64,000 nucleotides of DNA from Harmothoe impar (lineage: Eukaryota > Annelida > Polychaeta > Phyllodocida > Polynoidae), in assembly GCA_947462335.1 (NCBI GenBank), contig OX381707.1, positions 85,061,606 through 85,125,605 on the forward strand. The letters run 5' to 3'. The notes beneath the pieces are model-generated. The model saw only the letters and a list, made by a program, of their open reading frames with translations. It made no database searches and was not told the origin of the DNA. Shown one piece after another: positions 8,789 to 40,186 of this stretch. Every line of letters starts with the position of its first letter. The first letter of the stretch is position 1. The position numbers and the translations under genes were made by a program.

Positions 8789-11700
8789 GCAGCTTGAGTC
8801 AAATATGTACAGGGTTATACACAGTTCAGTGTATGTTTATATATATATAGTAGGTTATGTGGCTAGCTTTACAAAATTTTGGTACAAAATAACCTAATCT
8901 TCTTTCATGCATGTTAGCTGATATTCTGTTGCAATCTGATGTAAAACCAGCAAAGACCATTGCATAACAGACAAGGTAACAATCCTTTCCAAAATGGTTA
9001 GCATTATATTAATCAACTAGGGACCCTAAAATCACAAGACAAAGCTCCGAAAAGAGCTAATGAGTGGTTGTAAAAGAGAAAGAAAGTACCTCAGATACTG
9101 AAACATATATTCTCTCATTCGGTTTGAATAGTCAAATAGGCAAGTGAACTAAGAGAAATGTTTATGTTGATAAAGCATGGATCCCCCTCATCTCCCACCC
9201 TACTCCCACCCTAGGCCCTGAGCACACAGCAATCAGACTGCTCCCTATCTCCTTATAGAGCTAGCACAGTTCGGTGTGTCTGTACATATTGACTGAGGAC
9301 TGCCGGGTTGCGTTCCACAATAAATCTGATGGTTGTCTCTGTATAGATCTAACTAAATAGTAAGTTTCTTGAGGGTCAAAAGCTACTCTCCCTCTGTGTC
9401 TAAAAATATAATTCAGAATTTCAAGCAAATGATCAAGTAGAATGACAATAGTTAGTAACTTCATAGAACAGCCATTATAAAGTCTAATTTCGCTAAGAGT
9501 ATAAGTATATATCAGCATATTGTCCCTCAAATATATGTCAGGTATTACGTCTTTAGGCCTGGGTCCACTAGCATATATAAGGCTGTTTGTCGTCCTTGAA
9601 AACGTGAATTTGAATACAAATATGAAATATATGTTTTGTCTCCCTGTGGACACAGGTGAACGCCAAATTTCTCAAATACAACAGTGAGATAGCAATTTGG
9701 GGGTATCAAAAGTGGATGACAAAAATGAGAATGTAGAAAATCTAACATGTTTGATTTTTACTGCAGAAATTGGGCGATTTGCTCTTTATTCTATTATTAT
9801 AACTCATCCATGTTTACCCTGGGCAGTCTGGGCAGCAATTTATAACGCCTATTGGACACAGCATACCACATGCAGTCTCCTAAGTTTCCAAAAGGTCAGT
9901 AATGTAGTGCTAGTGTATTACTCACCAGCACTGCATAAGTTTATCAAAATGACAGGTTTCCTTCAGGCAACACCCCATTTCTAAAGGTTTAAACTGCAAA
10001 AAGTAGTAAGAAAAAGACAATCCCATATGTTCTAAAGTGAAGTGTATATATGTAAAAAATATTTACAGAGGCTGAAATGACTTGTACCTGACAGTTGTTT
10101 CTCAACTTAGGTCGATCCATCAGAAGCCAGTCATTTTTTATCTACAGACATTATCAATATTGTTTTAATAACTTGGAAATATCTTCCCTGCATGTTTGTG
10201 ACCATAACTACACCATTTCTCCCATAAATTGGGGAATCCTTCCATGGTACCCATCAATATTTCTTGTATTACAGCAACAAGCATACTGGCACTACTTTAA
10301 CAACAAACTTTGGTGCTAGCAATGCTGCTCAGGAAAATAAGTCGACGTGCCGCAAGCTTGTATCATAGTATTACACTCAATCATTACAGTTCAAGGTGAA
10401 TAATCTCAAAAGGTAGTTTTCTTTTTGCATATGTTGAAGGGACATGGAGTTCAGGATTACTAGAACATTAGAATGAATGACATATTACCAATTCAAATGA
10501 CATGAGCGTTTTGTAGCTGATTACAGATGATTCAATGGCATGTCAGATGTTGCCCGATATAACCTGTTATAATCAATCCATTGTTATACAGTGATGAGCG
10601 TCTTCAGGGTTACTTGATTTCTTCATCTGTAGCTTGCTACACTTTGTCCCTTGACATGCACAGTATAGACAAAGGGGGGAGTTAATCTTGCATAGGGGGA
10701 GAGGGAGGCAGATCCATCAATCATATTTCCTCAACATCTGTGTCCTCTTGATATTATTTAAGTTGAAGACAAGTCCTCCTCCAAGACCTATACCAATTCA
10801 TCAGTGAAAGCTCCTGAGCTACATCTTAATCCAATTCTTTAGCATTAAACAGAATGCTTCAGGCATGATCAAGTGAAAGTACTGAAACTAAGAGAACACT
10901 TTTTACTGTCTGCAATATGAAACCAGAATAGTGCCCTATGAAACCCTAGTCCCATGGGCCATGCATTTAGTGCATGTCATATGTCTCTGTAACACAGAGA
11001 AACCCCAAATAATGGGAAGGTAGTTAAGCCTGAAGCACAGCGCACTGGAGAACCAGCTGAACCCTTCTATAAAAGAGTCATCAGTAAGAGCTACTGAGTA
11101 CTAGTTAAGCCCTTGAAAATGATGCATTTGGCACGATCAACTGAAAGTACTAAAGCAAAGAGAGCCATTTTCACAAGAAACTGTGTAAAACATGAAACCA
11201 GAAAAGTACCCTTTTCCCTAGTCCCCTTGGCCATGTCATGTTTCTCTGTCAGAAGCACCCAGTAATCGGACAGCAAGTCTCTTGTAGCACACATGTACCA
11301 GTTGACCAGCTGCACCCTCAATCTGTTTACCACCTGTTCTATAGAACGTTATTGGTAAAAGCTGCTAAGCACCTGAGCACTAGTTAACCCGAGTTTGCAA
11401 TTGTGGTGAACATGATGCTTCAGACGAGATTAGGTGATAGTATTAGGGCAGAGAGAACCCTTTTCACAAGACACTGCAAGCATTTTGGAATCCAAAAGAA
11501 TATAATCCCACCCTTTACCTTAGTCCCAGGGGCAATGTACCTAGTGATTGTCATGACTCTCTGTTAGGTACAGTCAGAAACACTCAATGACCTTATAGCC
11601 ATCTCCCTTTACAGCACACTGTGCTGGAAGTATATAGACAAATGCCAATGCCCATTGACACCAGACCGTCTCTGTCATATGTCATGAGTTGAGCCTTGGG

Positions 11701-18900: not shown

Positions 18901-19042
18901 CGAGCAGCCAATTCTTAGACTCACTAAATAACAATCCATGACCTCTGCTTTTCCTCAGTAACAGCTGCTATTGTGGTAAAATAGCTTCAAGGGGGCTGTA
19001 AAATACAAAACACAAACGTTACAGGTTATCAAAAAAAAACAT

Positions 19043-19276
19043 ATGTATACTTTCGTCTCTGAAATGATGGACGGATTCAGCCCAGAGGAAATGTGGGCCA
19101 TGAGGAGAGCAATATACAGGTTATATGACATCAACACTGGCAGAATTTGTTCTGTGCCTACTTCACTTGTGGCTGCCCTGAGAGGATGTTTCCTGACACC
19201 TCCTACCTCCCTATGGCTGTCACTTCTACTGCTGACCTCCTCACTGTTAATAGCCAGTCTATGGAAGGCAGATTGA
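19043..19276 (+). CDS. Module A, intact 77-aa frame for a putative small membrane protein
   Basis: This is the only unit in which module A is open from an ATG to a stop without a lesion. It would encode an N-terminal hydrophilic part (about residues 1-30, with FSPEEMWAMRR), a central part with two cysteines (ICS, GCF), and a C-terminal hydrophobic stretch of about 20 residues (SLWLSLLLLTSSLLIASLW) that could span a membrane, ending KAD. A second ATG pair (MM) lies at codons 8-9. Family unknown. The U1 and U2 copies are broken, and the U4/U5 copies drift into other frames. It may be a relic or an exon of a spliced transcript. The length alone is weak evidence. Confidence 0.3.
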   Translation: MYTFVSEMMDGFSPEEMWAMRRAIYRLYDINTGRICSVPTSLVAALRGCFLTPPTSLWLSLLLLTSSLLIASLWKAD

Positions 19277-20009
19277 GTCAAATATTTACAGGGTTATATG
19301 CAGTTTAGTATATATATAAAAACAAATAGCCAGCGATCTCAGTGCCCATCAAATCCATCTTATCTCTAGACGTGGCTAGCTTTCCAGAAATTTGGTGCAG
19401 AACAAAACCTAATCTTCTTTCATGTCAGTTCATATTCTGTTGCCATTTGAGGTAAAAACCAGCGCAGACCATTGCATTAATGACAAGGTAGCAATCCTTA
19501 CAAAACAGTTTCCATCATATTACTCGACGAGGGACCCTTATATGATTAATCAACGGGTTTAAAAAGAGCTAATAAGCTTATGAGTAAATGGAAGAAAAAC
19601 TACCTCATATACTGAAACATATATATTCTCTATTTGGGTTTGAACAATCAAAGAGGTAATTGAACTGAGAGAGATGTATCTTTTAATGATACATTTCTTC
19701 ACAAACAGGTATCCCCCTCATCTCACATCCTACCCCAACCCTAGGCCCTGAGCACAGCAATCAGACTGCCCCATATGTCCTTGTGTATCCAGCACAGCTG
19801 TGTGTGTCTGCACATAGTGACTGAGGACTGCCAGGTCCTGTTATGCTATAAGGCTGATAGTTGTTACTATATTGATCTCACCTGAAAGATTCTAGAGGGC
19901 TATACGCTAAGATAGATCCAAAAATATGATCTAGCTGTTTAAGCAAACCATTGAATACAACGATTTCTGTTGTGAATTTTTTTCTGACAATAAACAGTAC
20001 ACTGTTAGA

Positions 20010-20230: not shown

Positions 20231-20540
20231 CCTACTTATGTGTGAATGGTAAAGCGGTCAACACAGGATCCCTGGGGCAATGTTAGAACTGGACTGTTCA
20301 TGTCTTAAGGGTTGATATGAAAGTTACCCTATTGCAGTAATGTACTAATAAGTACCAAACTATACCATTAATTGGAGTGTAATCTTGATGGCCTATAGAT
20401 GTTTTTCAAAGTAAATTTTACTATCTTTCCTGCAGATTGTAGAAATACATTGGTTTTATCCTCTGCATATTTTCAATGGTAATATTTCAGTGTACTAAAA
20501 TATATTATACTTTAGAATTGCATCAGTAGAAATGTAGTTT

Positions 20541-20626
20541 GTATGAGAGTTTCCTGCCGGGACTGGAACTGCTGACCCTCCGACTACATCTCCCACTGCT
20601 CTACAAACTGAGCTAGAGGGACAATC
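20541..20626 (-). mobile_element. tRNA-like SINE segment
   Basis: Read on the minus strand, it starts TCCCTCTAGCTCAG with a D-arm-like A box (TAGCTCAGTTTGTAGAGC) and later AGTTCCAGTCCC, a mutated B box. The T-arm does not fit a functional tRNA and no acceptor pairing closes. The same segment is at 48,142-48,226 within the shared 20,240-20,665 / 47,925-48,280 block, so it predates that duplication. Confidence 0.65.
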
Positions 20627-20689
20627 ACTTATATGTAGCCTGCATCAATAGGCTTTTGAAAAGATCATGTCATATTTGAGCTGTGGAGT

Positions 20690-21044: not shown

Positions 21045-21050
21045 GAAGAG
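21045..21050. repeat. Left target-site duplication GAAGAG
   Basis: GAAGAG directly abuts the first base of the left inverted repeat. It is repeated at 30,540-30,545 after the right repeat. The empty paralogous locus has it once (31,748-31,753). Confidence 0.95.
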
Positions 21051-21238
21051 AGTAGTATAGTATGTATCGGAACGGGACTATAGTTAAGTACTGTTTATTA
21101 CTCAATCGACATGCAGCCAATCAGAGGCCTCCATTTGGTCACGTGACCCCCTCATTTGCATAATTACGTAATAGGCCACGCCCCCTCATTTGCATAATTA
21201 CGTAATAGGCCACGCCCCCTTGATCACCAGCCAATCAG
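21051..21238. repeat. Left terminal inverted repeat, high-identity part
   Basis: It matches the reverse complement of 30,352-30,539 with two mismatches over 188 bp (at about 21,088 and in the first TTACGTAAT). Beyond 21,238 the two ends still share the same motif array but with indels to about 21,450. TTTATT at 21,094-21,099 is an AATAAA signal for leftward transcripts. Confidence 0.95.
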
Positions 21239-21570
21239 GGCCGCCATTTGGTCACGTGACCCCCACGTGACCCCCTCATTTGCATAATAGACCACGCCCC
21301 CTTGATCACGTGACCCCCTCATTTGCATAGTAGACTACGCCCCTTTGATCACCAGCCAATCAGTGGCTTCCATTTGGTCAGGTGACTCCCTCATATGCAT
21401 AATCATGGATCACGTGACCCCCTCATTTGCATAATAGGACCACACCCTCTTGGTCACGTGACCGGAAGCGCTCTTTATTTAGAAAATAGGCCACACCCCC
21501 TTGGTCACATGACCTGACCCCCTCCCTCATTTGCATAATATAGACAATAGACAGACTACGCTTCCCTTTT
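21110..21570. promoter_or_regulatory. Left subterminal array of transcription-factor-like sites
   Basis: A module is iterated in whole or part several times: AGCCAATCAG (CCAAT box, NF-Y type), GCCATTTGG, GGTCACGTGACC (CACGTG E-box palindrome), CTCATTTGCATAAT (octamer ATTTGCAT), TTACGTAAT (bZIP type) and GGCCACGCCCCC (KLF/Sp GC box). The same words are mirrored at the right end. The density and ordered repetition suggest an enhancer/promoter, or binding sites for element or host factors. Binding is inferred from consensus words only. Confidence 0.7.
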
Positions 21571-21597
21571 GGTCACATGACTTGGACTAGCTAATGG

Positions 21598-21728
21598 GAG
21601 GCTTCTATAAGGGGCGAGGGGAGGGGAGGGGGGGAGGGGGGCACTTTAAGATGCATGGGGAGGGGAGGGGGGGAGGGGGGCACTATTTATGGGGTGGGCG
21701 GGCACTTGGGGGGGAGGGGGGGCTTTTG
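21598..21728 (+). other. G-run tract with quadruplex potential
   Basis: The plus strand has a long series of G runs (GGGG, GGGGGGG, GGGGGG) broken by single A, C or T, with GGGGCACTTTAAG- and GGGGCACTATTT-type interruptions, a duplicated AGGGGAGGGGGGGAGGGGGGCAC block included. No equivalent tract is inside the right end, so it makes the two ends asymmetric. Confidence 0.7.
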
Positions 21729-21785
21729 GGGTCTGCTCGGGAGAAAAAAAAAAAATTATCTGATCTCTAGGGAATCGCTTCCTCT

Positions 21786-21807
21786 CTACCCCCCTTTAGG
21801 GGGGTAG
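21786..21807. other. Hairpin with TTTA loop
   Basis: CTACCCCCC and GGGGGGTAG form a perfect 9-bp stem around TTTA. The loop is the same as that of the histone-type stem-loop at 24,705, but the stem composition does not fit the histone consensus. Confidence 0.7.
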
Positions 21808-21809
21808 GG

Positions 21810-22430
21810 AGGAGGCGAGTCGGAGGTGACTGTAGAGGAGTTTTTCGGTGACTTGATGCTTTTCAAACGACTGTGCTGATAGTTGATGAATTTGACTTTT
21901 TGACTTGAATATTTCATGCGACTTTGTGACTTGTAAGCGAAAGCGAAAGCGACTTTGCGGCCCGTAACTCTTTAAATAAAGAGGTGACTTTGTAACCTCA
22001 GGGGGGAGATCCTTCTACACCCCCACGGAGTAGAAAGGATCTCGGTTGATTGACTGTACTTTGACTTGTTGTTGTAAACAAAACAAAAAAAGAAAAAAAA
22101 AAAAAAAAAAAAAAATCAATGAATAGAACGACCCCCTCATTGCTAACAAAGGAACGACTTTTGAATTACACAAATGACCCTCTTTTTGTAGGGGTTAGCG
22201 GTAACTCGACTTGAATTAGAGTATTAGGGAGAGCAAAACGCGACTACACACCGTCTTAGACTGTCGTCTTACGGCCCGGATAACAATAACCCTAGTTACC
22301 TCGGTTACTGTTGCTCAAGAGACGGCGATGGATCTGGTCACGTGGATACTGAAAGAAGGTCTACCTATAACCACCACGCTAGTTTGAACGCGGCGGGTAT
22401 GAGTCATCATGGGGCCCTTGACGGGTGGGT
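21810..22430. other. Left interior of the element, no supported gene
   Basis: It contains GAAAGC direct repeats (about 21,940), a second hairpin (arms 22,007-22,018 and 22,030-22,042, AGATCCTTCTAC against GTAGAAAGGATCT with one bulge) and an A tract at 22,081-22,116. A 19-codon frame starts at an ATG near 22,329 in good context (GGCGATGGA); it is too short to support. A CACGTG lies inside that frame. Confidence 0.5.
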
Positions 22431-22439
22431 CCTCCCCAT

Positions 22440-22800
22440 GCAGCCGTATGTCGAATTTAAGAAATGCCCATGTCACACGTCACTAAGGGAGAAAACGTTT
22501 TTTGAAAATATTTAGAACCCGAATTTGAGCATTCTGGTACATTTTTAAGGACCCAGACACTGCAAAGCCGAGTACCATCCAAGAGAAAAAAAAATTTGGC
22601 GAAATGTTTAGGCTTGAAATGGCACTTTTCTGATGCACTCTTTGAACATTTTTTTTTTCCTCATGTCACTATGGTCCATGGCACATGTGGGACTCAAGAA
22701 ATGCCACATGTCCCATGTCACTTAGATGTCCGTGCCCGTGTCGTCGTATCGAATTTTAAGAAAATGCCCATGTCACCATATCGAATTTAGGGGTCTAGTG
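22440..22800. repeat. Imperfect direct repeats with AAGAAATGCCCATGTCAC
   Basis: Related words occur near 22,452, 22,693 and 22,751 (TCGAATTTAAGAAATGCCCATGTCAC and variants), with further ATGTCAC and CATGGCAC fragments between them. The 64-codon frame here is built of these repeats and is not credible. Confidence 0.6.
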
Positions 22801-22962
22801 ACATCAGCATGTCCGGCTATCCTCCACAAATTTAGCTCTAAAATGTTTACTTTTTTTTTTTGGGCTGATTTTTCATCATTTTAAAAAAAACAATAGGTTG
22901 TTTGAAATGTTTGCTGTTGTAAATAGAAACAAAAACAAAACAAAGCGCATGGTAAGATTATG

Positions 22963-23032
22963 TCACATTGCAAGTGGCGGGTCCGCTCGAGGCTTATTCA
23001 GCCTCTTCGTGGATCCGCGACTGCCAATGTGA
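22963..23032. other. Long imperfect hairpin, about 70 nt
   Basis: TCACATTG at the left pairs with CAATGTGA at the right. Inside, GCGGGTCCGCTCGAGGCT faces AGCCTCTTCGTGGATCCGC with a few mismatches or bulges around a TATTC loop. The arms are about 30 nt each. It could be a structured RNA or a recombination/cleavage site; there is no direct evidence for either. Confidence 0.6.
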
Positions 23033-23129
23033 TCATATACTAATCACCGGTGTTTACGGTATTATATACTAAGGTATGAGACGGGTCTTACAGAAAAGGT
23101 GTCTAAAGAGCCCTGTGACCTGATTGAAA

Positions 23130-23137
23130 TGACGTCA
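23130..23137. promoter_or_regulatory. CRE palindrome TGACGTCA
   Basis: A perfect CREB/ATF-type palindrome in context TGACGTCAGC. The same 10-mer occurs at 24,255, about 44 bp before the start of the 117-aa gene. A 72-codon frame follows from 23,260. Confidence 0.45.
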
Positions 23138-23259
23138 GCGCCGTCTGCTCGTCAGTGCCCGGCTGTAGCCCGTAGGACATGTTATTCTGCTTTTCTGGAT
23201 GTTTTGAAATATTTTGATTTAACTGTTAATACCTGATAACAAGCCTCTGAAGCAGATTT

Positions 23260-23478
23260 TTGGTCGAGCACCTGTTCTCTACTCTTCCATCGATTAGCTG
23301 CTTCAGCAAAAAAGAAAAATCGCGCGCGCGGTCTAGTCTATATGACGGAGTCGCTAAAGCTCTGTTTAGAGAGTGGAACTTGACCTTGAGTATAGACTCA
23401 GTACTAACTGAACGCCCCGCGGGGTCACCCCTCACGTGGGAATATGTACAAGCTCTGGTTCTTCACTTTACGGCTTGA
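23260..23478 (+). CDS. Uncertain 72-codon frame, no ATG
   Basis: Open after a TGA at about 23,249 to a TGA at 23,476. The composition looks protein-like (SLYDGVAKALFREWN, LTWEYVQALVLHF) and is not repeat-derived, but there is no in-frame ATG. Use would require splicing into it or a non-ATG start. A donor-like AAG/GTATGAG lies at about 23,072 and an acceptor-like TTTACTAG at about 23,531; neither obviously feeds this frame. Family not recognised. Chance is a real alternative. Confidence 0.2.
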   Translation: MVEHLFSTLPSISCFSKKEKSRARSSLYDGVAKALFREWNLTLSIDSVLTERPAGSPLTWEYVQALVLHFTA

Positions 23479-23539
23479 CTAAAACTGAGACGCGTCCATG
23501 ATAAACTCTAGCCTTTTTTTTCCTTTACTAGGATCGAGA

Positions 23540-24100
23540 GAGAGATTTTAAATGGGGCGTTTATCTAAATAGCGTGGAACTAAAATCAGGCTGCGGCAGA
23601 TAGTATCTCTGCGCACCTCAAGACTCAACGTAACTTTCACTCTCCAGCAGAAGTTTAGTTGTGACTAATGATGGGCGGCGACCGTCGTGCACCGGCGGAC
23701 ATTGGAGAGTGTTGGAGAGCTGAACCTTACAGACATATAAATCAATCGCTTTGGTGGAAATATCTCGCCATAGATTGGAACCAAATACTTATCTAATGGA
23801 ATCGTTATCAGTTTTCAGTTTTCTTGCCGTACAAAATTTATTTCCCACTCTTCACGTGCACGTGGTGATAGCTGAAGGTCGCTCGTCGTAGGTACGTGTG
23901 ACCGGAACACCCTTTTTGTTTTTGGCGCGGGTTGACATCAGATTTGTACCGTACTGTCGCGATTAAGAGCTCTGAGGGAGGGCTTTTCAATTCGGTGAAG
24001 TTCTTACTCAGGAGCTATATACAAGCCAGGCGCTGGCGCTTATTCAAAGTCGCGATTTTAGTGCTTGAGAAAAAACATTTGGAGGCTCTTATACTCCGGC
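23540..24100. other. GC-richer region upstream of the 117-aa gene
   Basis: No supported frame and no obvious repeats. It is likely the promoter-proximal region. It contains CACGTG at about 23,855 and GGCGCGGGTTGAC at about 23,923. Confidence 0.4.
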
Positions 24101-24103
24101 GCT

Positions 24104-24111
24104 TATAAAAG
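24104..24111 (+). promoter_or_regulatory. TATA box of the 117-aa gene
   Basis: TATAAAAG in context GGCGCTTATAAAAGACC. A start about 25-30 bp downstream (near TTTTCAACACTAG) would give a leader of roughly 160 nt to the ATG at 24,299. Confidence 0.6.
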
Positions 24112-24254
24112 ACCGGCACGCTTTTCAACACTAGTTGCTTTATCGCGACCGTACGGTATGACTTCAGTGTCAAAAGATCCCAAACTCCAAATAAGGAAGT
24201 GAAACGACGTCGTCTGTCTACCTCGTGCGCGTCATAGCGTCGTCGAAAATAGTG

Positions 24255-24262
24255 TGACGTCA
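24255..24262 (+). promoter_or_regulatory. CRE palindrome in the leader
   Basis: TGACGTCA followed by GC, identical over 10 bp to 23,130. It lies between the TATA box and the ATG, so it may act as a downstream element or mark an alternative start. Confidence 0.4.
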
Positions 24263-24298
24263 GCATCTCTCAGGCGGCTAGGAAGTCAGTTCGACAAA

Positions 24299-24652
24299 AT
24301 GGCTCACGGAGTGAACTTCGTGGCCGTTTCTCGATCTATGATCGATGCGGCCGTGGAGAAGGAATTCGTAGCCGTGCAACAGAGAGAGGAGGCGGAGAGA
24401 CAGAACTTCGTGGCCGTTTCTCGATCTATGATCGATGCGGCCGTGGAGAAGCAGTTCGTAGCCTCGCTACAGAGAGAGGAGAGACAGCGGACTGCTGCTG
24501 AAGCAGAGGGTGTGGTGGATGAGCTGATCGAGAACGTCGCTGATCAACTCATCCGCCGGTGCGTGGAGCAGGTCAAGCAGCAAGTCTGCATGGAGGAAGG
24601 CTTACCGCCCGCCGTGCTGGAGGAGCTGCTGAAGGACTGCCACGCGTTATGA
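24299..24652 (+). CDS. 117-aa helical protein with a 30-residue tandem repeat, histone-type 3' end
   Basis: Start chosen at ATG 24,299 in context ACAAAATGGCT. The frame is open further upstream only from a GTG at 24,254 inside the CRE. Residues 6-35 and 36-65 are a tandem repeat (NFVAVSRSMIDAAVEK in both copies). Residues 66-117 are charged and probably helical, with three cysteines, ending KDCHAL. No signal peptide or membrane segment is seen, and no family is recognised. The 90-bp DNA repeat is identical over 49 bp, so the duplication is recent or homogenised. The gene has its own TATA box 188 bp upstream and a consensus histone stem-loop 53 bp after the stop. This implies a short intronless mRNA without poly(A), possibly made in S phase. 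It is not a histone: too acidic and no histone fold. Confidence 0.7.
   Translation: MAHGVNFVAVSRSMIDAAVEKEFVAVQQREEAERQNFVAVSRSMIDAAVEKQFVASLQREERQRTAAEAEGVVDELIENVADQLIRRCVEQVKQQVCMEEGLPPAVLEELLKDCHAL
24313..24492 (+). repeat. 90-bp in-frame tandem repeat
   Basis: GAACTTCGTGGCCG starts at 24,313 and 24,403. The first 49 bp are identical and the rest diverged. It encodes the two 30-residue repeats. Confidence 0.95.
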
Positions 24653-24704
24653 CCACGCCCTCCGCTTCAGCAGCAAGGTCCCTGCGACCCTCTCTCTACC
24701 AAAC

Positions 24705-24745
24705 GGTCCTTTTAAGGACCAACCACTGATCACAAAAGTTGAAAA
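24705..24745 (+). terminator. Histone-type 3' stem-loop and purine-rich downstream element
   Basis: GGTCCT-TTTA-AGGACC (24,705-24,720) fits the metazoan histone mRNA consensus GGYYYU-UHUH-ARRRCC exactly. It is preceded by ACCAAAC, like the usual CCAAA flank, and followed by AACCACTGA, where cleavage would fall about 5 nt after the stem. ACAAAAGTTGAAAA at 24,732-24,745 is in the right place for a U7-binding histone downstream element. No AATAAA follows closely. Family knowledge: this structure binds SLBP and directs cleavage without polyadenylation. Confidence 0.8.
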
Positions 24746-24880
24746 TCAATCTCAATATAATATACGCATCAGAAAAACCCTAATACGCTATACACTGAAA
24801 CCCTGTTGAGTAGGTAGATCGAGTTGGGCATTTTTTTTTAGGAAGAGCAATCAGGTCATCGTGTGGAGATCATCAGGTGT

Positions 24881-24882
<2 letters not shown>

Positions 24883-24966
<84 letters not shown>
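24883..24966. repeat. (TG)n microsatellite
   Basis: An uninterrupted 84-bp TG run. Confidence 0.98.
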
Positions 24967-24969
<3 letters not shown>

Positions 24970-25470
24970 TTTATACAAATACAATTATTCATTCCTTTCA
25001 GCAAGAAAATTAGCTCAATGTAATCATATGATTTTAACTGCCCTACTTATCAGAGCCTTGACGACATCTGACCGCCCCCCTTTTCAAGATCTAAATGGAA
25101 ATTCACCGCCACCGCTTTTCAGAGTACTGCAGCGCCATTACCTAATTCTTTTTGTATGTGAAAAAAAACAAAAAAAAAACAGCACTGATAAGGGGTTTAA
25201 TTAGACAGATATTGGTTTCTACACTATCAAAAAAATAAAACCCTCAGCGCTTTAATGCTAAAGGTGGCAATAGTGCTTTAATGCGCTACGCCCTTTGTCG
25301 ATATGCCAGTGTATGCATGCATGCAGCCCTGGTGAGGAACTCTGAGTGCCGCATTCATGACTTATGACGACAACGGGCACTGCACATTAAAGCGCTATGC
25401 GACTATTAAAGGGTTAGATCCAGTCTTGCTACAGGCATCCAGAATGCTATACCCAGAGTTGGTGGTCTGG
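24970..25470. other. Spacer with GCTTTAATGCGCT words
   Basis: No supported gene. GCTTTAATGC/GCATTAAAGC-type words recur (25,247; 25,272; 25,383), and a partial palindrome surrounds TGCATGCATGCAGCCCTGG. A similar GCATTAACGCGCT is at 27,625 and similar words appear near the window end (63,880-63,990). The 71-codon frame at 25,357 runs into the tandem array in a frame that is not kept in later copies. Confidence 0.4.
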
Positions 25471-26737
25471 TCCAGACTGCTGTACACAGATTGTAGACGG
25501 GATGGCGGGTTGCTGCCAGACTATCCCTCTGGTACGATATGCGGCTGGCGCGGCCGAGCCTGTCTTATATGATGCTGAGTCTAACTATGTATTAGATACC
25601 CTACGAGTAACTGAGAGTATGTCAAAATAATCACGGCAAACTGACTGGCGTCTTCATAGGATCATAGGGTGGTTATTATTACATAACTCAGTAACCTTTG
25701 GTTATGTGTTAGATAGAGTACACTTAGACACGGTTATTCCATATACCCACTGCCCCACAGGGTCAAGACGAGGTGATTTAAATAATAAGACCCAGACGGG
25801 TAAAATAGCCAAAGTCAACAATGACCTGTTTTTTTTTTTTTTTTGGTTTTTTTTTTTAGCCAATATGGACAAAGAGACACGGGGTGCTGTACACAGGTTG
25901 TGGACGGGCTGGTGGGTCACTGCCAGACTATCTCCCTGGTCCGATATGCAGCCGGCGTGGCCGAGCCTGTCTTATATGATGCTGAGTCTAACTATGTATT
26001 AGATACCCTACGAGTAACTGAGAGTATGTCAAAATAATCACGGCAAACTGACTGGCGCCTTCATAGGATCATAGGGTGGTTATTATTACATAACTCAGTA
26101 ACCTTTGGTTATGTGTTAGATAGAGTACACTTGGACACGGTTATTCCATATACCCACTGCCCCACAGGGTCAAGACGAGGTGATTTAAATAATAAGACCC
26201 AGACGGGTAAAATAGCCAAAGTCAACAATGACCTGTTTTTTTTTGTTTTTTTTTAACCAATATGGACAAAGAGACACGGGGTGCTGTACACAGGTTGTGG
26301 ACGGGCTGGTGGGTCACTGCCAGACTATCTCCCTGGTCCGATATGCAGCCTGCGTGGCCGAGACTGTCTTATATGAGGCTGAGTCTAATTATGTATTAGA
26401 TGTGCTACGAGTAACTGAGAGTGTGTCAAAATAATCACGGCAAACTGACTGGCGACCTCATAGGTCAGTTATTATTACATAACTATTATTACATAACTCA
26501 GTAACCTTCGGTTATGTGTTAGATAGCGTGCACTTGGACACGTTTATTCCATGTACCCGCTGCCCCACAGGGTCAACACGAGGTGTTTAAATAATAAGAC
26601 CCAGACGGGTAAAATAGCCAAGTCAACAATGTCCTGTTTTTTTTAGCCAATATGGACAAAGAGAAACGGGGTGCTGTACACAGCTTGTGAACGGGGTGGC
26701 GGGTCGCTGCCAGACTATCCCCTGGTCCGATATGCAG
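25471..26737. repeat. Four tandem copies of a roughly 395-bp unit (last partial)
   Basis: The marker GCTGTACACAG starts at 25,479, 25,886, 26,283 and 26,673, giving periods of 407, 397 and 390. Each full unit has TATGTATTAGAT near the middle of its short frame, then ATAACTCAGTAACC, CCCACTGCCCCACAGGGTC, and a variable T tract followed by (A)GCCAATATGGACAAAGAG. Copies are highly similar, so the array is recent or homogenised. Confidence 0.95.
25860..26037 (+). CDS. Short frame conserved in three copies of the array (uncertain)
   Basis: After the T tract and AGCC the frame reads YGQRDTGCCTQVVDG, then HCQTISLVRYAA, NYVLDTLRVTES and a TAA at 26,037. The same frame is open in copy 1 (ending 25,630) and copy 3 (ending 26,434), with amino-acid changes but no stop or indel; copy 4 ends before it. 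No natural ATG opens it. T(n)AG before it looks like a splice acceptor in copies 2 and 4; copy 3 has TAA instead. All three forward frames are fairly open here, which weakens the case. Family not recognised. Confidence 0.25.
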
Positions 26738-27001
26738 TAAATTTTCTGCACCGTGTGACAACGACCGATCAGCTACCAACCTATTTTTGGTTATTTTTCT
26801 ATTCAGTTTTTGATCAGCGCACTTTATTATCGTGGTTTTTTTTTTAAATTTTTTAATCATAAATAATATGTAGACTTGGAAAAAAAAAAAGAGAGCTGAC
26901 ATGTCGCTGTTTTGTCACTAAACCCAAAGACCCACCCACCCCGTAGGAAGGGTGGACGTTTGTGAACGTTCCCTTAGGTCTCTATTCTTTATTTATTGTG
27001 T
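26738..27001. other. AT-rich spacer with minus-strand poly(A) signals
   Basis: A and T tracts at 26,839-26,880. TTCTTTATTTATTGTG (26,985-27,000) gives two overlapping AATAAA signals on the minus strand just beyond the 27,002 hairpin. No supported gene. Confidence 0.4.
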
Positions 27002-27136
27002 GGCCCCTAAAGAGGGGCCAACCAACTGACACTGTCAGTTGGTTAGTAGATGCTACTCAACATGGGCGTAATTAATTACACCTAGTGTTGAGAAACAACA
27101 TGACTGAGCTCAAAAGGCCCCCGTTGGGTGGGGGCC
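27002..27136. other. Cluster of four consecutive strong hairpins
   Basis: Hairpin 1 (27,002-27,019): GGCCCCT-AAAG-AGGGGCC. Hairpin 2 (27,020-27,044): perfect 12-bp arms AACCAACTGACA/TGTCAGTTGGTT around one C. Hairpin 3 (27,056-27,092): CTCAACA/TGTTGAG enclosing an inner near-palindrome around TAATTAATTA. Hairpin 4 (27,116-27,136): GGCCCCC/GGGGGCC with a 7-nt loop. Nearly the whole 135 bp can pair locally, which is unlikely in ordinary spacer. Possible roles: structured RNA, transcription boundary, recombination or replication site. Confidence 0.75.
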
Positions 27137-27930
27137 CTTGTGGCACAACGAGTTGGTTCGTTTTTCAGATTACCGACTCGGCGAGAGTTTCTGCCTATGT
27201 ATCTTTTATAAAGCCTTAGATATGGTGTGGTATTTTTCATCTCGCTATAGTTTAGTTGGTATTCAAAGAAACTGCCTCATTTCTATCAGAAATACACAAT
27301 ATTGAATTGTTTTTATATTTTAATATATTCAGAAGCACACTTTGTTGCCTATATAGCTCATTATGCGTTGAAATGTTCGCGAGCATCGTAGGAATGTACA
27401 AATCCCCTATTGTGGCGCCATCTGACGAAAGAGCAAGGAACTATACGTGACCTGAACCCCGCCCTCAGCGCGTTCGTTATTCGCATCTTTGACAGCGACT
27501 AAGAGACGCTCAAACTGTCTCTTATTTAGTTTGAACTTATCACAAATTTGTCTTTGATAGGTCGTAGATCGACTTCTGACTTTTTAGTTAGAATAAAAAA
27601 CAAGTGACGCCGCCACAGACCCGCGCATTAACGCGCTCCGCCGTCTTCAGAGGGCCGAGTCTATAGTACAGTAGATTCTACTGTGTACTTACACTAACAG
27701 TGCTACATATACATACCTGAGTCATAAGTGGTTTTTTTTTTGTTTTTTTTTAGGGGAAAAAAAGTGATCTACTCACCCAAACCGCTATTAGTAGGTAACC
27801 TGTATGACCCATGCCGCAAACATCTGCCTCGTGACTGATAGTGTACCGGTGGTGAAGTGCTGTTGCAAGAACAATTGAGGCTCTTTATATAGCTGAGAGA
27901 GCGAATGGACTAATCTTGTTTTCACCTTGA
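27137..27930. other. Unassigned element interior
   Basis: I see no supported gene. There is a T tract at 27,731-27,750 and a TACAGTAGATTCTACTG palindrome-like word at about 27,668 shared with the SINE body near 20,080. The frame at 27,256 has no coding-like features. Confidence 0.4.
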
Positions 27931-27939
27931 GCCCCACCC

Positions 27940-28480
27940 TATTCCAGAGAGGGTATCAAAAATCGCATGTACACGTATATGGGCTTATAGCTGGTGAATA
28001 GATAAGGCGGGGCACTTGTGTATACTAAGACTCCATGGGGCGTTTTAACGACAGGTGTGACGCGCCAGCCCGTGGAGGGAGCTTTTTTGTTTTTCACCTA
28101 GAGAGCGTATACAAAGCCTACAGGGGGTGATTAACGCCAGGTGTGACGCGCCAGCCAGTGGCCGGATCACCTCATCTTCTAAGCTTTTGTTTTCACCTAG
28201 AGAGGGGATCGAGAGTGTATACAAAAAACTACAGGGATGTTTAACGCGGCCAGCTGCCTACATGCTATAGTCTAAGCCTGTTTTCAGCTAGAGAGGGATC
28301 TACATCACCTAAGCCCTTTCCACCCTTAAATCGATCTGATAATTACCATAAAGAAGAGTAATGCGCGTTACATGTATATGGGCTTATAGCTGAGTAAGAG
28401 CTTAAGATGCTAGTCAACTGTGTATGCAAAAAAACAAACTACAGGGGGTGTCTAAAGTCGATTGTCATGCGCCAGCGGGC
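27940..28480. repeat. Imperfect tandem repeats upstream of the alanine-rich gene
   Basis: A composite unit recurs: TTTTCACCTAGAGAGG (about 27,930, 28,092, 28,192 and a variant at 28,282), GTGTATAC..ACTACAGGGGGTG (28,017 variant; 28,107; 28,216; 28,430) and AACGxCAGGTGTGACGCGCCAGCC (28,047-28,070; 28,133-28,156; shorter forms at about 28,243 and 28,465). The word TATATGGGCTTATAGCTG occurs at 27,976 and 28,376. Spacing varies from about 90 to 200 bp. It may be a regulatory array for the gene at 28,788. Confidence 0.7.
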
Positions 28481-28536
28481 GGACAGAAGTCTGCCACTCT
28501 AGCTGTGACTACAAGCGCGTGCGTGTGGTAGACAGC

Positions 28537-28755
28537 TTAAATCAAACACGAGTTAAGCTCCTTATAGCTTCTTACTGTCTGCGGATTCGAGTCTATTGTT
28601 TTTTTCATGTATTTCCTCGGAGGGTCGAACAGGATTAAAGATGTAACGAACCCGCGCCTACACAGGTAGACAGCCGGTCGCCTTCCTAGTGAGAGTTTTC
28701 CTCCTGAGTTAAGAAGCTTATCTCGGAGCCTAGTACATAAGCGAGAGTGAAACAT
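28537..28755 (-). CDS. Uncertain 72-aa basic frame, divergent to the alanine-rich gene
   Basis: ATG on the minus strand at 28,755, stop at 28,537. It reads MFHSRLCTRLRDKLL, then GRRPAVYLCRRGFVTSLILF and ends SYKELNSCLI. It is not repeat-derived and looks protein-like. Its start is 33 bp from the start of the 401-aa gene on the other strand, so the two would share a bidirectional leader. No family is recognised and no repeat support exists elsewhere. The nearest 3'-end signals on this strand are the AATAAA pair at 26,985-27,000. Confidence 0.25.
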   Translation of the reverse strand: MFHSRLCTRLRDKLLNSGGKLSLGRRPAVYLCRRGFVTSLILFDPPRKYMKKTIDSNPQTVRSYKELNSCLI

Positions 28756-28828
28756 GAGTCCCACACACTTCTTCAACCACCTTCAGCATGGCGTCATCAG
28801 GAATCACTCTACGTTCTACCGAATGTGA
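28754..28828 (+). CDS. Upstream ORF overlapping the start of the alanine-rich gene
   Basis: ATG at 28,754 opens a 24-codon frame in another register that ends at TGA 28,826-28,828, inside the main coding region. If the leader includes it, it would reduce initiation at 28,788 or require leaky scanning. The main ATG has the stronger context (CAGCATGGCG). Confidence 0.4.
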   Translation: MSPTHFFNHLQHGVIRNHSTFYRM

Positions 28829-29993
28829 GCAATCCCAACACTACTACAGAGCCGCGACAACACCACATGAGGAGACGTCCATGTTTACTGATGAGTCAAC
28901 AAGTAGCAAGGTGGAGGTTGGTTTTTATCAAGATTCGTACGGGTGGCTGGAAAGTGTGAGGGCTACTTCTGCAGCTAATGCTGCTGCTCGTGCAAAACGT
29001 GAAGCTCGTATCGCTGTTCGTGCTACACATGCAGCATACGAAGTTGCCAATGCTGCTAACAACGTTGCTGTTACTCTCGCCACTGCTGCTCGTGCTGCTA
29101 ATCTTTTTGCTACTGTTTCCGCTCTTGCTACCGATGCTGCTGCTACTGATGCTGCAACGTCTGCTAAAAGTGTCGCTGTTGCGGCTGCTGCTAGGGCTAA
29201 TGCTATTAATGCTTGTACAGCTGCTAAAAAAATAGCCTGTTTTGCTTATGCTAGTCGCAGTGTCGCTGTTACGGCTATGACTGATGCCCATGATGCTAAG
29301 TTACGGGCTTTTGCTTTTGCTGAAGATGCTGTTGATGCTCAAGATGTTGCTGCTGCTGCTGCTACTGCTGCTGATGAGGCTGCTGCTGCCGCTGCTGCTG
29401 CTGCTGAAGATGCTGCTGCTGCTGCGGCTGATGCTCTAGACACCTATGACGCTGCTGCTCTAGACACCTATGACGCTGCTGCTGCTGAAGATACTGCTGC
29501 CGCTGCTGCTACTGCTGCTGCTGAAGATGCTGCTGCCGCTGCTCTAGACACCTATGACGCGGCTGCTGCTGCTTTTGCTGAAGATACTGTTGATGCTGCT
29601 GCTGCTACTGCTGCTGCCGCTGCTGCTACTGCTGCTGCCACTGCTCTAGACACCTATGACGCTCCTGCTACTCCTGCTCTAGACACCTATGATGCTGCTG
29701 CTGCTGCTGCTGCCACTGCTCTAGACACCTATGACGCTCCTGCTACTCCTGCTCTAGACACCTATGATGCTGCTGCTGCTGCTGCTGCCACTGCTCTAGA
29801 CACCTATGACACTCCTGCTACTCCTGCTCTAGACACCTATGATGCTGCTGCTGCTGCTGCTGCTGCTGAAGATGCTGCTGCTGCACTAGTCATCTATGAC
29901 GTGGCTACTGCTCTAGACACTTATGACGCGGCTGCTGCTGCTGCTGCTGCTGAAGATGCTGCTGCTGCTGCTGCTCTAGACACCTATGACTGA
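28788..29993 (+). CDS. 401-aa alanine-rich protein with LDTYD repeats
   Basis: Start ATG in context TTCAGCATGGCG, stop TGA at 29,991. Residues 1-58 are ordinary sequence rich in S/T/E/Y with FYQDSYGWLESV. Residues 59-190 are alanine-rich with regularly spaced N, R, K, V and T, which would favour a long amphipathic-like helix. Residues about 191-401 are alanine runs with AED and eleven LDTYD motifs plus one degenerate LVIYD. A 25-residue block (LDTYDAPATP, LDTYD, alanines) occurs three times. No signal peptide, membrane segment or known domain is seen. The complex N-terminal part, with mixed codons, argues against a pure GCT-microsatellite artefact. Possible roles by analogy only: structural or scaffold protein, ice-binding-like helix, phospho- or acid-patterned adaptor. 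Transcripts could end at AATAAA 30,491 in the right inverted repeat. Confidence 0.65.
   Translation: MASSGITLRSTECEQSQHYYRAATTPHEETSMFTDESTSSKVEVGFYQDSYGWLESVRATSAANAAARAKREARIAVRATHAAYEVANAANNVAVTLATAARAANLFATVSALATDAAATDAATSAKSVAVAAAARANAINACTAAKKIACFAYASRSVAVTAMTDAHDAKLRAFAFAEDAVDAQDVAAAAATAADEAAAAAAAAAEDAAAAAADALDTYDAAALDTYDAAAAEDTAAAAATAAAEDAAAAALDTYDAAAAAFAEDTVDAAAATAAAAAATAAATALDTYDAPATPALDTYDAAAAAAATALDTYDAPATPALDTYDAAAAAAATALDTYDTPATPALDTYDAAAAAAAAEDAAAALVIYDVATALDTYDAAAAAAAAEDAAAAAALDTYD
29430..29990 (+). repeat. In-frame GCT-rich minisatellite with CTAGACACCTATGAC units
   Basis: Eleven copies of CTAGACACCTATGA(C/T) (one with ACT for ACC) alternate with GCT/GCC runs. The near-identical codons point to recent expansion by slippage or unequal exchange. 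The length is expected to vary between alleles. Confidence 0.9.
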
Positions 29994-30042
29994 AAACATA
30001 GTAGGCGTTATTTACAAACACTGCTGTTACCTATGCCTAAAC

Positions 30043-30145
30043 TTAGTAGGTCTTATTTACAAACAAGAGAGCCACGTGGTGTTGTTTACAAACAAAGAGA
30101 GCCACGTGGTGTTGTTTACAAACAAAGATAGTCACGTGATGTTGT
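30043..30145. promoter_or_regulatory. 30-bp repeats pairing TGTTTAC and CACGTG
   Basis: The unit GCCACGTGGTGTTGTTTACAAACAAAGAGA starts at about 30,071, 30,101 and (diverged) 30,131. Each joins a CACGTG E-box to a forkhead-like TGTTTAC. A further TTATTTACAAACA lies at 30,008 and 30,053. These adjoin the inner edge of the right inverted-repeat array, directly after the alanine-rich gene. Confidence 0.6.
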
Positions 30146-30480
30146 TGTGGTCTATCATGTCAATGAAGGGGTCACGTGATCAAGGGGGCGCGGTCTATTA
30201 TGCAAATGAGGGGGTCGCGTGACCAAATGGCGACCTCTGATTGGCTGGTGATCAAGAGGGCGTGGCTTATTATGCAAATGAAAGGGTCACGTGATCAAGG
30301 GGGCGTGGCCTATTATGCAAATGAGGGGGTCACGTGACCAAATGGAAGCCTCTGATTGGCTGGTGATCAAGGGGGCGTGGCCTATTACGTAATTATGCAA
30401 ATGAGGGGGCGTGGCCTATTACATAATTATGCAAATGAGGGGGTCACGTGACCAAATGGAGGCCTCTGATTGGCTGCATG
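30146..30480. promoter_or_regulatory. Right subterminal array of transcription-factor-like sites
   Basis: A mirror image of 21,110-21,450: ATGCAAATGAG (octamer), GGTCACGTGACC/ATCACGTGAT, GGGGGCGTGGCC, CTGATTGGCT and ATTACGTAAT in repeated order. Homology to the left end is near-perfect for the outer 188 bp and then weaker with indels. Confidence 0.7.
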
Positions 30481-30539
30481 TCGATTGAGTAATAAACAGT
30501 AGTTAACTATAGTCCCGTTCCGATACATACTATACTACT
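30352..30539. repeat. Right terminal inverted repeat, high-identity part
   Basis: Reverse complement of 21,051-21,238 with two mismatches. It ends CATACTATACTACT immediately before GAAGAG. AATAAA at 30,491-30,496 is a possible poly(A) signal for plus-strand cargo. Confidence 0.95.
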
Positions 30540-30545
30540 GAAGAG
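30540..30545. repeat. Right target-site duplication GAAGAG
   Basis: Identical to 21,045-21,050. U3 unit sequence (AACAAATAAAGCAGC) resumes directly after it, as at the empty site 31,748-31,768. Confidence 0.95.
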
Positions 30546-31301: not shown

Positions 31302-31380
31302 GTCTCATGACCTTGGGCCAATGTTTTTGTCTCTGACCGGATGCCAGCTCTGGCTGGGTGCCAGCTCTGACCGGCCTGAA
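31302..31380. mobile_element. Fragment of the GGCTGTGTCTCA element family
   Basis: GGCTGTGTCTCATGACCTTGGGCC followed by TTTTTGTCTCTGACCGG matches the left end of the 1,994-2,511 element. The right half is missing and is followed at about 31,400 by the start of the local duplication. Confidence 0.65.
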
Positions 31381-31399: not shown

Positions 31400-32480
31400 G
31401 CTCTCTACTCTCTCTCCCCCTGGTGGCTGATTATGGGACTCGAACCTGCATTTACAGTAACTCAATTGTATGTTTACAGCAAAAATTACTGTATTATCTT
31501 TTACAGCTAAAGTACTGTATAGTTACAGCACATATTGCTGTTCACGAACAACAACAAGTGTAGCTTTCTAAAAGCCATTGTACAATGTTATTCCACTCAA
31601 AGTATTATAAGCATATTGACCCTGAAATATAACTCAGGTATGATGTCTTTATGATGGAAGTTGTGTTTATTGAAAAAAATATGTGATTGATAATGCGTTG
31701 ATGTTTTTTGAATTAAAATGGACTGCATACTTAAATATTATGGGATTGAAGAGAACAAATAAAGCAGCATTTTGGCTTTAGAAATACATTGTGGAATGGT
31801 TCCCAGAAGCCTGAGGCTTGGTGGTGGTGGGAGGTTGTTTTCACAGAATGGTAGTGTGATTTCCGCAGCATTTCCTGAGACGAATAGCTCTGCCTTCGTA
31901 AAGTGTGTAGAGGGAAACCACAGTAGACTTTAATACACTGACACTTGGTTGAAAGTGACCAGAGCGTTACCTACAATTTCAAATGCCTCTTTGCAATCAG
32001 GCTTAAATATTCTGAAACATGCTGCATACAATAATGCTCAAAACATTTAGGTTTAGTTACTTCTAAAAAAAGCTTATAAATATAGAGGGTGCGTGATTTA
32101 ATCTTTGGTTGAGCCAATCACAGCCTGTTGTGCAGAAGGTGTGAAAGGAGGCTACCAGCTGATGTAGAGTGGATGTTAGAAAAGACAGTTTAATATCAAG
32201 ATGACATGAAAGTTCTTGCTATCCAGTATATAGATAGAATGCATGGCATGTCCAATTTCTCGTGATATCATCAACTCATTGTAGTAGTACTTAGCTGAGA
32301 GACAAGCTGATACCTTTGTGTGGAAGGAACGCGTCGCATGATGTGAACAAAGGGGAGAGGGAATCATGGATGAAGACAGATCCAGCAAACATATTTTCTC
32401 AACAGCTGTGTCCTCTTGATACTATTTAAGCTGGATACAAGTATTCCTTCACGACTTACACCAGTTCATTAGTGAACGCT
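31400..32480. repeat. Local 1.2-kb duplication, copy 2, with empty target site
   Basis: It aligns with 20,690-21,050 joined to 30,540-31,300. The join TGGGATTGAAGAGAACAAAT at 31,741-31,760 has one GAAGAG and no insert. It begins with a SINE-like B box on the minus strand (GGTTCGAGTCCCAT, about 31,436). Confidence 0.9.
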
Positions 32481-34438
32481 CCTGAGCTATATCTTACCCC
32501 GATTACTCAGTGCTTAATTAGCATAATGCTTCAGGCACGATTAAGTAAAAGTACTGAAACAAAGAGAACCATTTCCACAAAAAAATGCCTGCAACATGAA
32601 ACCAAAAGAGTACCCTTTACTCTAGTCCCATGGGCCCCATGCATGTCAAGTCCTCAAGTGACGCTTAGTCAGCAACACCCAATAACAGGACAGTAGGCAG
32701 CCTGTAGCACACAGTGCTATAGAGGACCCACTGCATCCTCAGCCCTTCTACCATCTGTTACAGCTTATCTGGCCTTATGGGAGGTCTTTTTATTTCATGG
32801 TGAATACGGACTGTCAAGGTTAAAGCAATCGGAGGGCCGTTCTCCAGAGGTGCGTGAAAAAACCCTGGATCATATTTCATGCTGTGCCCGTATTTCATGT
32901 TCCAAAGGGGCTTGGGCTGTCGGTTGCTATGGGGTCGCCATGGGGTCGTAGTGCTGCCGAAAGTCACGTGAAACAGCACAGAAGTAAGCAAACATGGACT
33001 GGATATTTATTTTATATGGGGAAAACATAAAATAAATACAGAGCGGCACTTAAAAGTGCCCTCATCTATGGTTAACTCTTGGGGCCTGTCCCATACTGCA
33101 CTAGGCCTGCGGCCAGCGTGCAGTACAGGACAGGCCCCACTCGTACAATAACCACAGACTCAGTCACTTTAGCGTGCAGCTCTGTCTATTTATTCATCTA
33201 ATGACACTCCCATTGACTAAACCAAGGAAGGTCGCATTTAACACCCCAAGTGAAATGATCCTCGCCTGTATTTCACGGCCTGTCAAGGCACCAAAGTGGT
33301 TGATTTAACCACAATAACTTAGCTTTCTCAGAGTAATCATGTAGAATTTCGATGAATATTGTCAACTATGACATGAAATAAACACAAAGGAGGACTCGCC
33401 AATGGTAAGGAACTCTACTCGTGCACCTTTGTCTATATCCTCAGTGGGTGAATACAACATATATGGTGTATATGTAGAAGCCCTAATGTGCTAGGCTTGA
33501 CACTAATTGAAGACAATGACATATTATTAGTACTTTTATGTACTCTTCTTAGATGAAGAAGCCGGACAAGGTTGAATGAGGTGTTTTTAAGGCAGTTTAA
33601 TCTTACATTTTACACCTTTCTTATAGATTTAGGATTTTATCGCACTTATTGAGGGAGGAAGTGAAATTATAGTTTCGTTCATTTCATTTTCTCAAGCAAA
33701 TGTAAAAAAATCAGCTTTGTAATCAATGTCAGTAGTAGGAAAAACATGGCAAGAAATAATGGATGCTTATAAATATTTGTTTATGAATTTATATGGTAAT
33801 AACTGTTAGGAGTTCCTTATGGAGAATATAGAAATATGTTGGCTTCTTTGTTCTTGCAAAGTAGTTTTTCACGGAATTGCAACTCAACAGTGGCACAATC
33901 CTTTAATCATTTATATGACTATTATCAAAGGCGGGGAAGAATATCTGCTGTAAGGAAAGAGATTATTGTTTTTGTGATAATATAAAGACAAAAGGGTACA
34001 CCGAATTAAAAGTAAACATGTATGTGTCTGTGCCTTGGGTTTATGATTGGGTATAGAATTACTATGTTTAGTTACGCATGTATACAGATTTTAATTATGT
34101 TTAACCTTTTTCAGATTTAGTTATTAACAGTAGAGATATGGTGACTGTGATGTTACATGGTAGCCTGCTGTTGATAACTTAATCCAAAAAAAACGTAATT
34201 GGACATTACAAATGCTAATTTGGTGCGGCAAAACGGTAATTGGAAAACAGTAATTGGAAACTGCAGGAAAATGCACTATACTACTGGGAAATCTATGATG
34301 ATGCCATGGATAGAAAAGAGGTGATGTGGCAGTTATTTTCATATTGTGCAAAGCCATCTTTAATACCTTTTGGGATATTTTAGAGCCGCAGGTTTCACAA
34401 TTCACTGGAAACAAAATGTAGTTGTACTTGTACTTATT

Positions 34439-39986: not shown

Positions 39987-40186
39987 GGCTGTGTCTCATG
40001 AGATCTGCTCAAGTTGATAGTCATGGTCTTTGACCGATTGACGTTTTTGACCCGGTGATGTCTTTGACTGGCAAGATTAAAACGGATGAAATGGGGGCAA
40101 TCAACACAGAAATGGCACGAAAGATGTCACTTGGCCAAAGACTTCACTTGGTCAAAGACTATCAAATTGTATTGATATCATGAGAA
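39987..40186. mobile_element. Foldback-type element related to 1,994-2,511
   Basis: TGGCTGTGTCTCATGAGATC begins it and TCATGAGA ends it. Subterminal words GTCTTTGACC/GGTCAAAGAC are repeated and inverted. The same layout is at about 55,071-55,350 (longer core) and in part at 57,080-57,155. It is followed at 40,185-40,212 by a perfect 13-bp hairpin AAAGCAGGCAGTT/AACTGCCTGCTTT that also follows the other two copies in altered form. Confidence 0.6.

What the first reader, a model, noticed from the sequence alone, without database searches (positions are those of the whole stretch)
21045..30545. A complete 9.5-kb inverted-repeat element with its empty site in the same window
Inverted ends, a GAAGAG duplication and the unoccupied paralogous site at 31,748-31,753 fix both boundaries to the base. 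The occupied copy reads TGGGATTGAAGAG-element-GAAGAGAACAAAT; the empty copy reads TGGGATTGAAGAGAACAAAT. The two inverted repeats differ at only two of 188 positions, so insertion appears recent and later than the local duplication.
Basis: seen in the sequence. Interest (0 to 1): 0.9.

Follow-up and report, generated by a model that had tools for sequence, protein, structure and literature searches.

The report
One segment of a split Maverick
The 9.5-kb insert is one of several unlike ~10-kb elements with the same ends in this genome, and the genes of a Maverick (a virus-like jumping element) are divided among them, much like the segments of a virus.

Summary
Those ends and that duplication length are the published signature of vertebrate Mavericks/Polintons. 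This copy carries no recognisable Maverick core gene. The 1.51-Gb assembly holds 14,333 such ends. Of 40 end-pairs on one chromosome, 38 have perfect 6-bp duplications and 38 measure 8.7-10.5 kb; by end type they are A (this one) 10, B 10, C 9, D 8, mixed D/E 2, odd 1. The families share the outer 86-99 bp; B and C share little else. In the copies read, B carries integrase, ATPase, protease and a double-jelly-roll capsid protein; C carries the family-B DNA polymerase; A and D neither. Integrase and polymerase frames are mostly intact, dN/dS 0.42 and 0.28. Best reading: a recently active, genome-split (multipartite) Maverick whose ~10-kb pieces are copied by C's polymerase and inserted, probably packaged, by B's proteins. 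Whether A and D are segments or satellites is open. The host is unidentified; a unipartite relative elsewhere is not excluded. Seven literature searches showed no such system.

The parts
21045..21050 (.). left copy of 6-bp target-site duplication GAAGAG
21051..21149 (+). outer 99 bp, 96-100% identical over 86-99 bp to the ends of families B, C and E and, by eye, D; begins AGTAGT
21051..21457 (+). left terminal inverted repeat; 188 bp at 99%, imperfect to ~400 bp; array of octamer ATTTGCAT (5), CCAAT, CACGTG and CCACGCCC words
24299..24652 (+). 117-aa ORF with two ~30-aa repeats; present in 3 of 3 family A copies checked; two homologues (93% and 80%) in a 5.8-billion-protein set; no convincing domain
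25478..26737 (+). 3.2 tandem copies of a 407-bp unit
28788..29993 (+). 401-aa alanine-rich ORF ending in LDTYD repeats; open at 401, 439 and 466 aa in three family A copies
30146..30539 (-). right terminal inverted repeat; its outer 99 bp (30441-30539) are the shared end; ends ACTACT
30540..30545 (.). right copy of 6-bp target-site duplication GAAGAG
31748..31753 (.). unoccupied target GAAGAG in the paralogous tandem copy

Best explanation
The window element is a family A copy of a genome-split Maverick/Polinton. Two complementary elements supply the machinery: family B (10.3-10.5 kb) the integrase, packaging ATPase, protease and capsid protein, and family C (about 9.5 kb) the DNA polymerase. 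Families A and D, with the same outer 86-99 bp, are copied and inserted in trans. Proposed cycle: (1) the common AGTAGT end is the origin and attachment site; C's polymerase copies each ~10-kb linear piece from its ends (inferred from polymerase family and end type); (2) B's rve integrase recognises the same end and joins it to staggered cuts, giving 6-bp duplications (duplications shown; enzyme inferred); (3) B's capsid proteins probably package pieces one at a time, which would explain why unlike and even non-coding families keep nearly one length (lengths shown; packaging inferred); (4) inside the common end each family has its own array of words resembling host transcription-factor sites, which probably act as promoter/enhancer or help the origin (words shown; role inferred). 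A may contribute an alanine-rich protein and a 117-aa protein of unknown role.
Against: Transposition, replication and packaging were not observed. A unipartite element with both gene sets and these ends was looked for only in 40 pairs of one 5.2-Mb stretch, chosen because their ends match perfectly; one of them (13.2 kb, A-type ends) was not read inside, and the genome-wide polymerase search did not complete. Equal stoichiometry is not shown genome-wide: B ends 3,614; C ends about 5,700, estimated from 8,828 matches, and this may be inflated because D and E copies miss the C pattern by only 4 mismatches; A and D were not counted genome-wide. D (L034) has no ORF over 110 aa and A no known domain, so both could be satellites. 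The ORF in the minor-capsid position is named by position only and shows no constraint between two copies (dN 0.0129, dS 0.0140), nor does the protease ORF (3 replacements, 0 silent).
Confidence: 0.77

Rival explanations
1. An ordinary unipartite Maverick with the same ends exists, or existed until recently; A, B, C and D are separate deletion or replacement derivatives that ride on it.
For: Intact vertebrate Mavericks are 12.7-24.6 kb with the core genes on one element. A homologue of the capsid protein (44% identity) lies on a 16.6-kb contig elsewhere. E retains broken polymerase pieces, so gene loss happens in this lineage.
Against: In the copies read, B and C are complementary without overlap, and their integrase and polymerase are mostly intact and constrained, whereas deletion derivatives should overlap and decay. 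Beyond the terminal repeats B and C share only short stretches (176 bp at 72%, 84 bp at 76%). 38 of 40 pairs are too short for a unipartite element; the 15.9-kb one is an A copy with an insert of about 6.2 kb that matches none of the families; the 13.2-kb one was not read. A 20,074-bp B pair is explained by coordinates as a C nested in a B.
Confidence: 0.13
2. The core is bipartite (B plus C), and A and D are satellites: parasites of similar size that carry the shared ends and contribute nothing. (A refinement of the best explanation, not exclusive of it.)
For: A has no convincing Pfam domain in the 79 of 83 listed ORFs that were scanned; D (L034) has one ORF of 110 aa and none longer. Passengers mobilised in trans between shared ends are known, as large retrotransposon derivatives (PMC6431247 passage).
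Against: A keeps a 117-aa ORF and an alanine-rich ORF open in 3 of 3 copies, the latter despite repeat-length changes; the 117-aa protein has relatives with a conserved C-terminus. Copy numbers of A and D in the sample are like those of B and C.
Confidence: 0.45
3. A non-autonomous element of another transposon class with 6-bp duplications, unrelated to Mavericks.
For: The window copy alone has no diagnostic gene.
Against: Its outer 98-99 bp are 97-100% identical to those of the B and C copies that carry Maverick genes.
Confidence: 0.02

Closest known systems
Vertebrate Mavericks/Polintons (PMC8097293, passages and section 7)
   Same: (AGT)2//(ACT)2 ends, 6-bp TSD, long TIRs, family-B polymerase, rve integrase, packaging ATPase, adenain-like protease, double-jelly-roll capsid protein.
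   Different: Core genes divided over two ~10-kb elements instead of one of 12.7-24.6 kb; thousands of ends against at most 38 intact copies per genome in that survey; further co-ended families without core genes.
Bidnaviruses (Bombyx mori bidensovirus; PMC4061559, passages)
   Same: Two linear DNA segments with a conserved terminal structure, Polinton-derived polymerase, proposed origin of the second segment by replacing genes between conserved ends.
   Different: 6-6.5 kb ssDNA segments in separate capsids, parvovirus-type capsid protein; not known as a high-copy genomic family (recalled).
Large retrotransposon derivatives (PMC6431247, passage)
   Same: Long elements with other or no coding content, mobilised in trans through shared ends.
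   Different: LTR retroelements; here DNA-type ends, and the helper functions are themselves split.
Polydnaviruses (bracoviruses; recalled)
   Same: Segmented DNA of an integrated virus-like system.
   Different: Different capsid lineage and excision mechanism; not dispersed by self-copying (recalled).

Membership tests
Maverick/Polinton | (AGT)2//(ACT)2 end motif | tested here: met
   definition from PMC8097293
Maverick/Polinton | 6-bp target-site duplication | tested here: met
   window GAAGAG; 38 of 40 other pairs
Maverick/Polinton | terminal inverted repeats (46-1,447 bp in vertebrates) | tested here: met
   188 bp at 99%, ~400 bp in all; range
Maverick/Polinton | family-B DNA polymerase on the window element itself | tested here: not met
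   found on family C
Maverick/Polinton | rve integrase, ATPase, protease and capsid protein on the window element itself | tested here: not met
   found on family B
Maverick/Polinton | core genes present somewhere in the co-ended system | tested here: met
   polymerase, integrase, ATPase, protease, major capsid protein; minor capsid, PW, PZ and PM genes not identified by homology
Maverick/Polinton | core genes together on one 12.7-24.6 kb element | tested here: inconclusive
   not so in the copies read, but the 13.2-kb pair was not read and the genome-wide search was unanswered
Multipartite virus | different genes on separate molecules with common termini | tested here: met
   as integrated copies:
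Multipartite virus | segments packaged in particles | not testable with these tools
   only indirect: narrow lengths

The most novel reading that the evidence does not exclude
A multipartite, capsid-forming Maverick: four or more ~10-kb DNA segments (A, B, C, D, perhaps E) with a common ~99-bp end and segment-specific arrays of transcription-factor-like sites, each packaged separately and inserted into the host genome at similar frequency, together making up roughly 4-5% of a 1.5-Gb genome.
Probability: 0.4. Interest if true: 0.95.

Novelty: new variant of a known kind. Interest (0 to 1): 0.88.

Why it matters
Self-synthesising transposons are characterised by carrying polymerase and integrase together. 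A high-copy system in which they travel on different DNAs would show that a Maverick can become multipartite, as bidnaviruses did, and persist inside a genome. It would make the origin of multipartite DNA genomes testable, because thousands of boundary-precise ends of the families are preserved side by side and can be dated. Similar lengths in coding and non-coding families would also be indirect evidence that Mavericks form particles, which PMC8097293 (abstract) says have not been observed.

Tried and rejected
Rejected: (a) plain deletion derivative of one larger element, as the interiors of B and C are largely unrelated; (b) the 15.9-kb pair as a unipartite Maverick: it is an A copy with an insert of about 6.2 kb; the 20-kb B pair is a C inside a B by coordinates; (c) a guess from memory that the 117-aa ORF is related to GANP/SAC3: no such family in the Pfam list, nothing in PDB sequences.

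Led nowhere: Rfam and tRNA scans of the window; 407 bp of TIR in phage records (13) and a 36-nt TIR pattern in IMG/VR (16); 117-aa ORF and capsid protein in IMG/VR (29, 77); 10 ORFs in PHROGs (39); alanine-rich ORF homologues (44; only the 7,999 best candidates were scored); polymerase in phage records (79). The DNA-mode search with the 188-bp TIR in the own genome gave 0 matches, probably because common words are skipped, as the pattern search then found thousands. A first dN/dS run (end) was misaligned and is discarded; one search replaces it. The host species was not identified.

Literature searches. Phrases for non-autonomous or defective (32) and segmented/bipartite/multipartite (67) Polinton or Maverick: 0 papers each. 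Of 120 papers, 25 were listed and 3 opened at passages. The library lacks most subscription journals; Repbase was not available.

Full report
What is in the window. The element spans 21051-30539 (9,489 bp) between two copies of GAAGAG (21045-21050, 30540-30545). The same target stands empty at 31748-31753 in the neighbouring ~1.2-kb tandem copy (flanks 91-92% identical). The arms agree at 186 of 188 positions and the repeat continues, less perfectly, to about 400 bp. Inside lie a 401-aa alanine-rich ORF (28788-29993), a 117-aa ORF (24299-24652) and a 407-bp unit repeated 3.2 times. Of 83 stop-to-stop ORFs of at least 45 aa, 79 were scanned against Pfam; ten families were matched at E up to 0.1, each by one ORF, the best at 0.0013, and none is convincing.

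Which class. PMC8097293 (passages and section 7 read) gives the commonest end of vertebrate Mavericks as (AGT)2//(ACT)2 with 6-bp duplications, intact elements 12.7-24.6 kb long, at most 38 intact copies per genome. The window element has exactly those ends and that duplication length, but is shorter and lacks the genes.

How many. The window lies in an assembly of 1.51 Gb in 736 contigs. The 33-nt end, with up to 3 mismatches, occurs 7,155 + 7,178 times; its backward control 0 times. If every end belonged to a full-length copy this would be about 7,170 copies and 4.6% of the genome; truncated copies lower this figure and more diverged ends raise it.

What the others are. One search lists 100 ends, all perfect matches, on C1 between 0.07 and 5.24 Mb. 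They contain 41 adjacent +/- pairs; one of 94 kb is not an element and was dropped; the other 18 ends are unpaired in the list. Of the 40 pairs, 38 carry a perfect 6-bp duplication; one failure differs by one base, one altogether. By end type: A 10, B 10, C 9, D 8, mixed D/E 2, odd 1. Lengths: B 10,344-10,537; C 9,391-9,747; A 8,728-9,822 plus 13,245 and 15,926; D 9,208-9,721; D/E 9,786 and 9,881; odd 8,967. The four main counts fit equality (chi-square p 0.96), but with so few copies that test is weak. Genome-wide the B inner pattern has 3,614 matches, a quarter of the 14,333 ends, as in the sample (20 of 80 ends). The C pattern has 8,828 matches; the 100 listed (all perfect) mark 65 ends, so about 5,700 ends in all. 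This would make C about 1.6 times B, but the figure may be too high: the D and E copies held miss the C pattern by 4 mismatches, one more than allowed. In the first 9.31 Mb of C1 the lists give 65 C ends and 51 B ends. A and D were not counted genome-wide.

Activity. Identity between copies: D 99.8%; B 96.5-99.3% over its pieces; A (window against L036) 98.8-99.2%; C 96.8%. Residues 1-325 of the integrase are present without stops in 10 of 10 B pairs of the sample (one lacks 34 residues), mean dN/dS 0.42. The polymerase N-terminus (225-330 residues covered) is present in 9 of 9 C pairs, without stops in 7, dN/dS 0.28. Between two copies: polymerase dN 0.0028, dS 0.0141; capsid protein 0.0030, 0.0136; integrase 0.0013, 0.0094; Death-domain ORF 0.0047, 0.0258; but ATPase 0.0026, 0.0032, an ORF at 2151 0.0062, 0.0087 and the minor-capsid-position ORF 0.0129, 0.0140 show no clear constraint, the protease pair has three replacements and no silent change, and two other B ORFs (at 1746 and 3640) differ much more and are not informative.

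Terminal arrays. Inside the common end, each family has a different array of words that resemble host factor sites (names recalled): octamer and CCACGCCC in A, an X-box-like palindrome in B, ETS and CRE words in C, E2F words in D, over shared CCAAT and CACGTG words (one copy per family). The octamer occurs 5 times in each A arm, once in its 8.6-kb core and once in 54.5 kb of flank. No test of function was possible.

Interpretation. Shown: common ends, 6-bp duplications, division of genes in the copies read, mostly intact integrase and polymerase frames, narrow lengths. Inferred: replication in trans by C's polymerase, insertion by B's integrase, packaging as the cause of the uniform length, promoter or origin role of the arrays. 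B plus C as a complementary pair is the strongest claim; A and D may be segments or satellites. Bidnaviruses offer the nearest precedent: PMC4061559 (passages) proposes that their second segment arose by replacing genes between conserved ends.

Limits. The sample is one 5.2-Mb stretch chosen by perfect ends, so it favours young copies, and most pairs were typed by ends (B and C pairs also by one gene), not read whole. A unipartite helper elsewhere was not excluded. The host was not identified; that it is an animal is inferred from the end motif and the Death-domain ORF. Nothing like it was seen, which cover open-licence papers only.

Noticed in passing
L033 ORF 676-4827 (-), residues 878-949: The polymerase has a stretch weakly resembling Vsr mismatch endonuclease (PDB sequences, E 0.003) and near it a Glutaredoxin-like Pfam match below cut-off (965-1024): a possible inserted domain.
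   Followed up: no
L033:7590-8429 (+): Family C carries an ORF with a Death-domain match (Pfam 1.4e-7), possibly an accessory gene acting on host cell death; a weak match (25% identity) is in E.
   Followed up: partly
L035: Family E has a D-type end and a CRE-rich other end, broken polymerase pieces, and two copies (83% identical) of an ORF of unknown kind containing MSPRKKKQLPLE.
   Followed up: partly
G000 C1:1199398-1208364 (L043, L044): An 8,967-bp pair with a perfect TSD whose left end matches the common end only over the outer ~33 bp while the right end is C-type: perhaps a further family or a recombinant.
   Followed up: no
G000 C1:3023555-3043628: A C element appears to be nested in a B element: the 20,074-bp B pair less C and one TSD leaves 10,529 bp.
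   Followed up: partly
families A, B, C, E: Copies of A, B, C and E, but not D, have a long alanine-rich ORF (A 401-466 aa; stop to stop B ~250, C ~555, E 555), with different N-termini.
   Followed up: no
P0003-P0009: Capsid protein homologues at 95, 81, 79, 80, 73 and 72% identity occur on short public contigs, and one at 44% on a 16.6-kb contig of ordinary Maverick size.
   Followed up: no
window 2027-2092, 2236-2478, 31331-31374, 40026-40068: 17-bp minisatellites recur through the window, and larger duplicated blocks link 19000-19881 with 8514-9353, 20315-20680 with 47918-48283, and 32518-33998 with 48914-50420.
   Followed up: no
window 24883-24966: A perfect (TG)42 run inside the element.
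   Followed up: no
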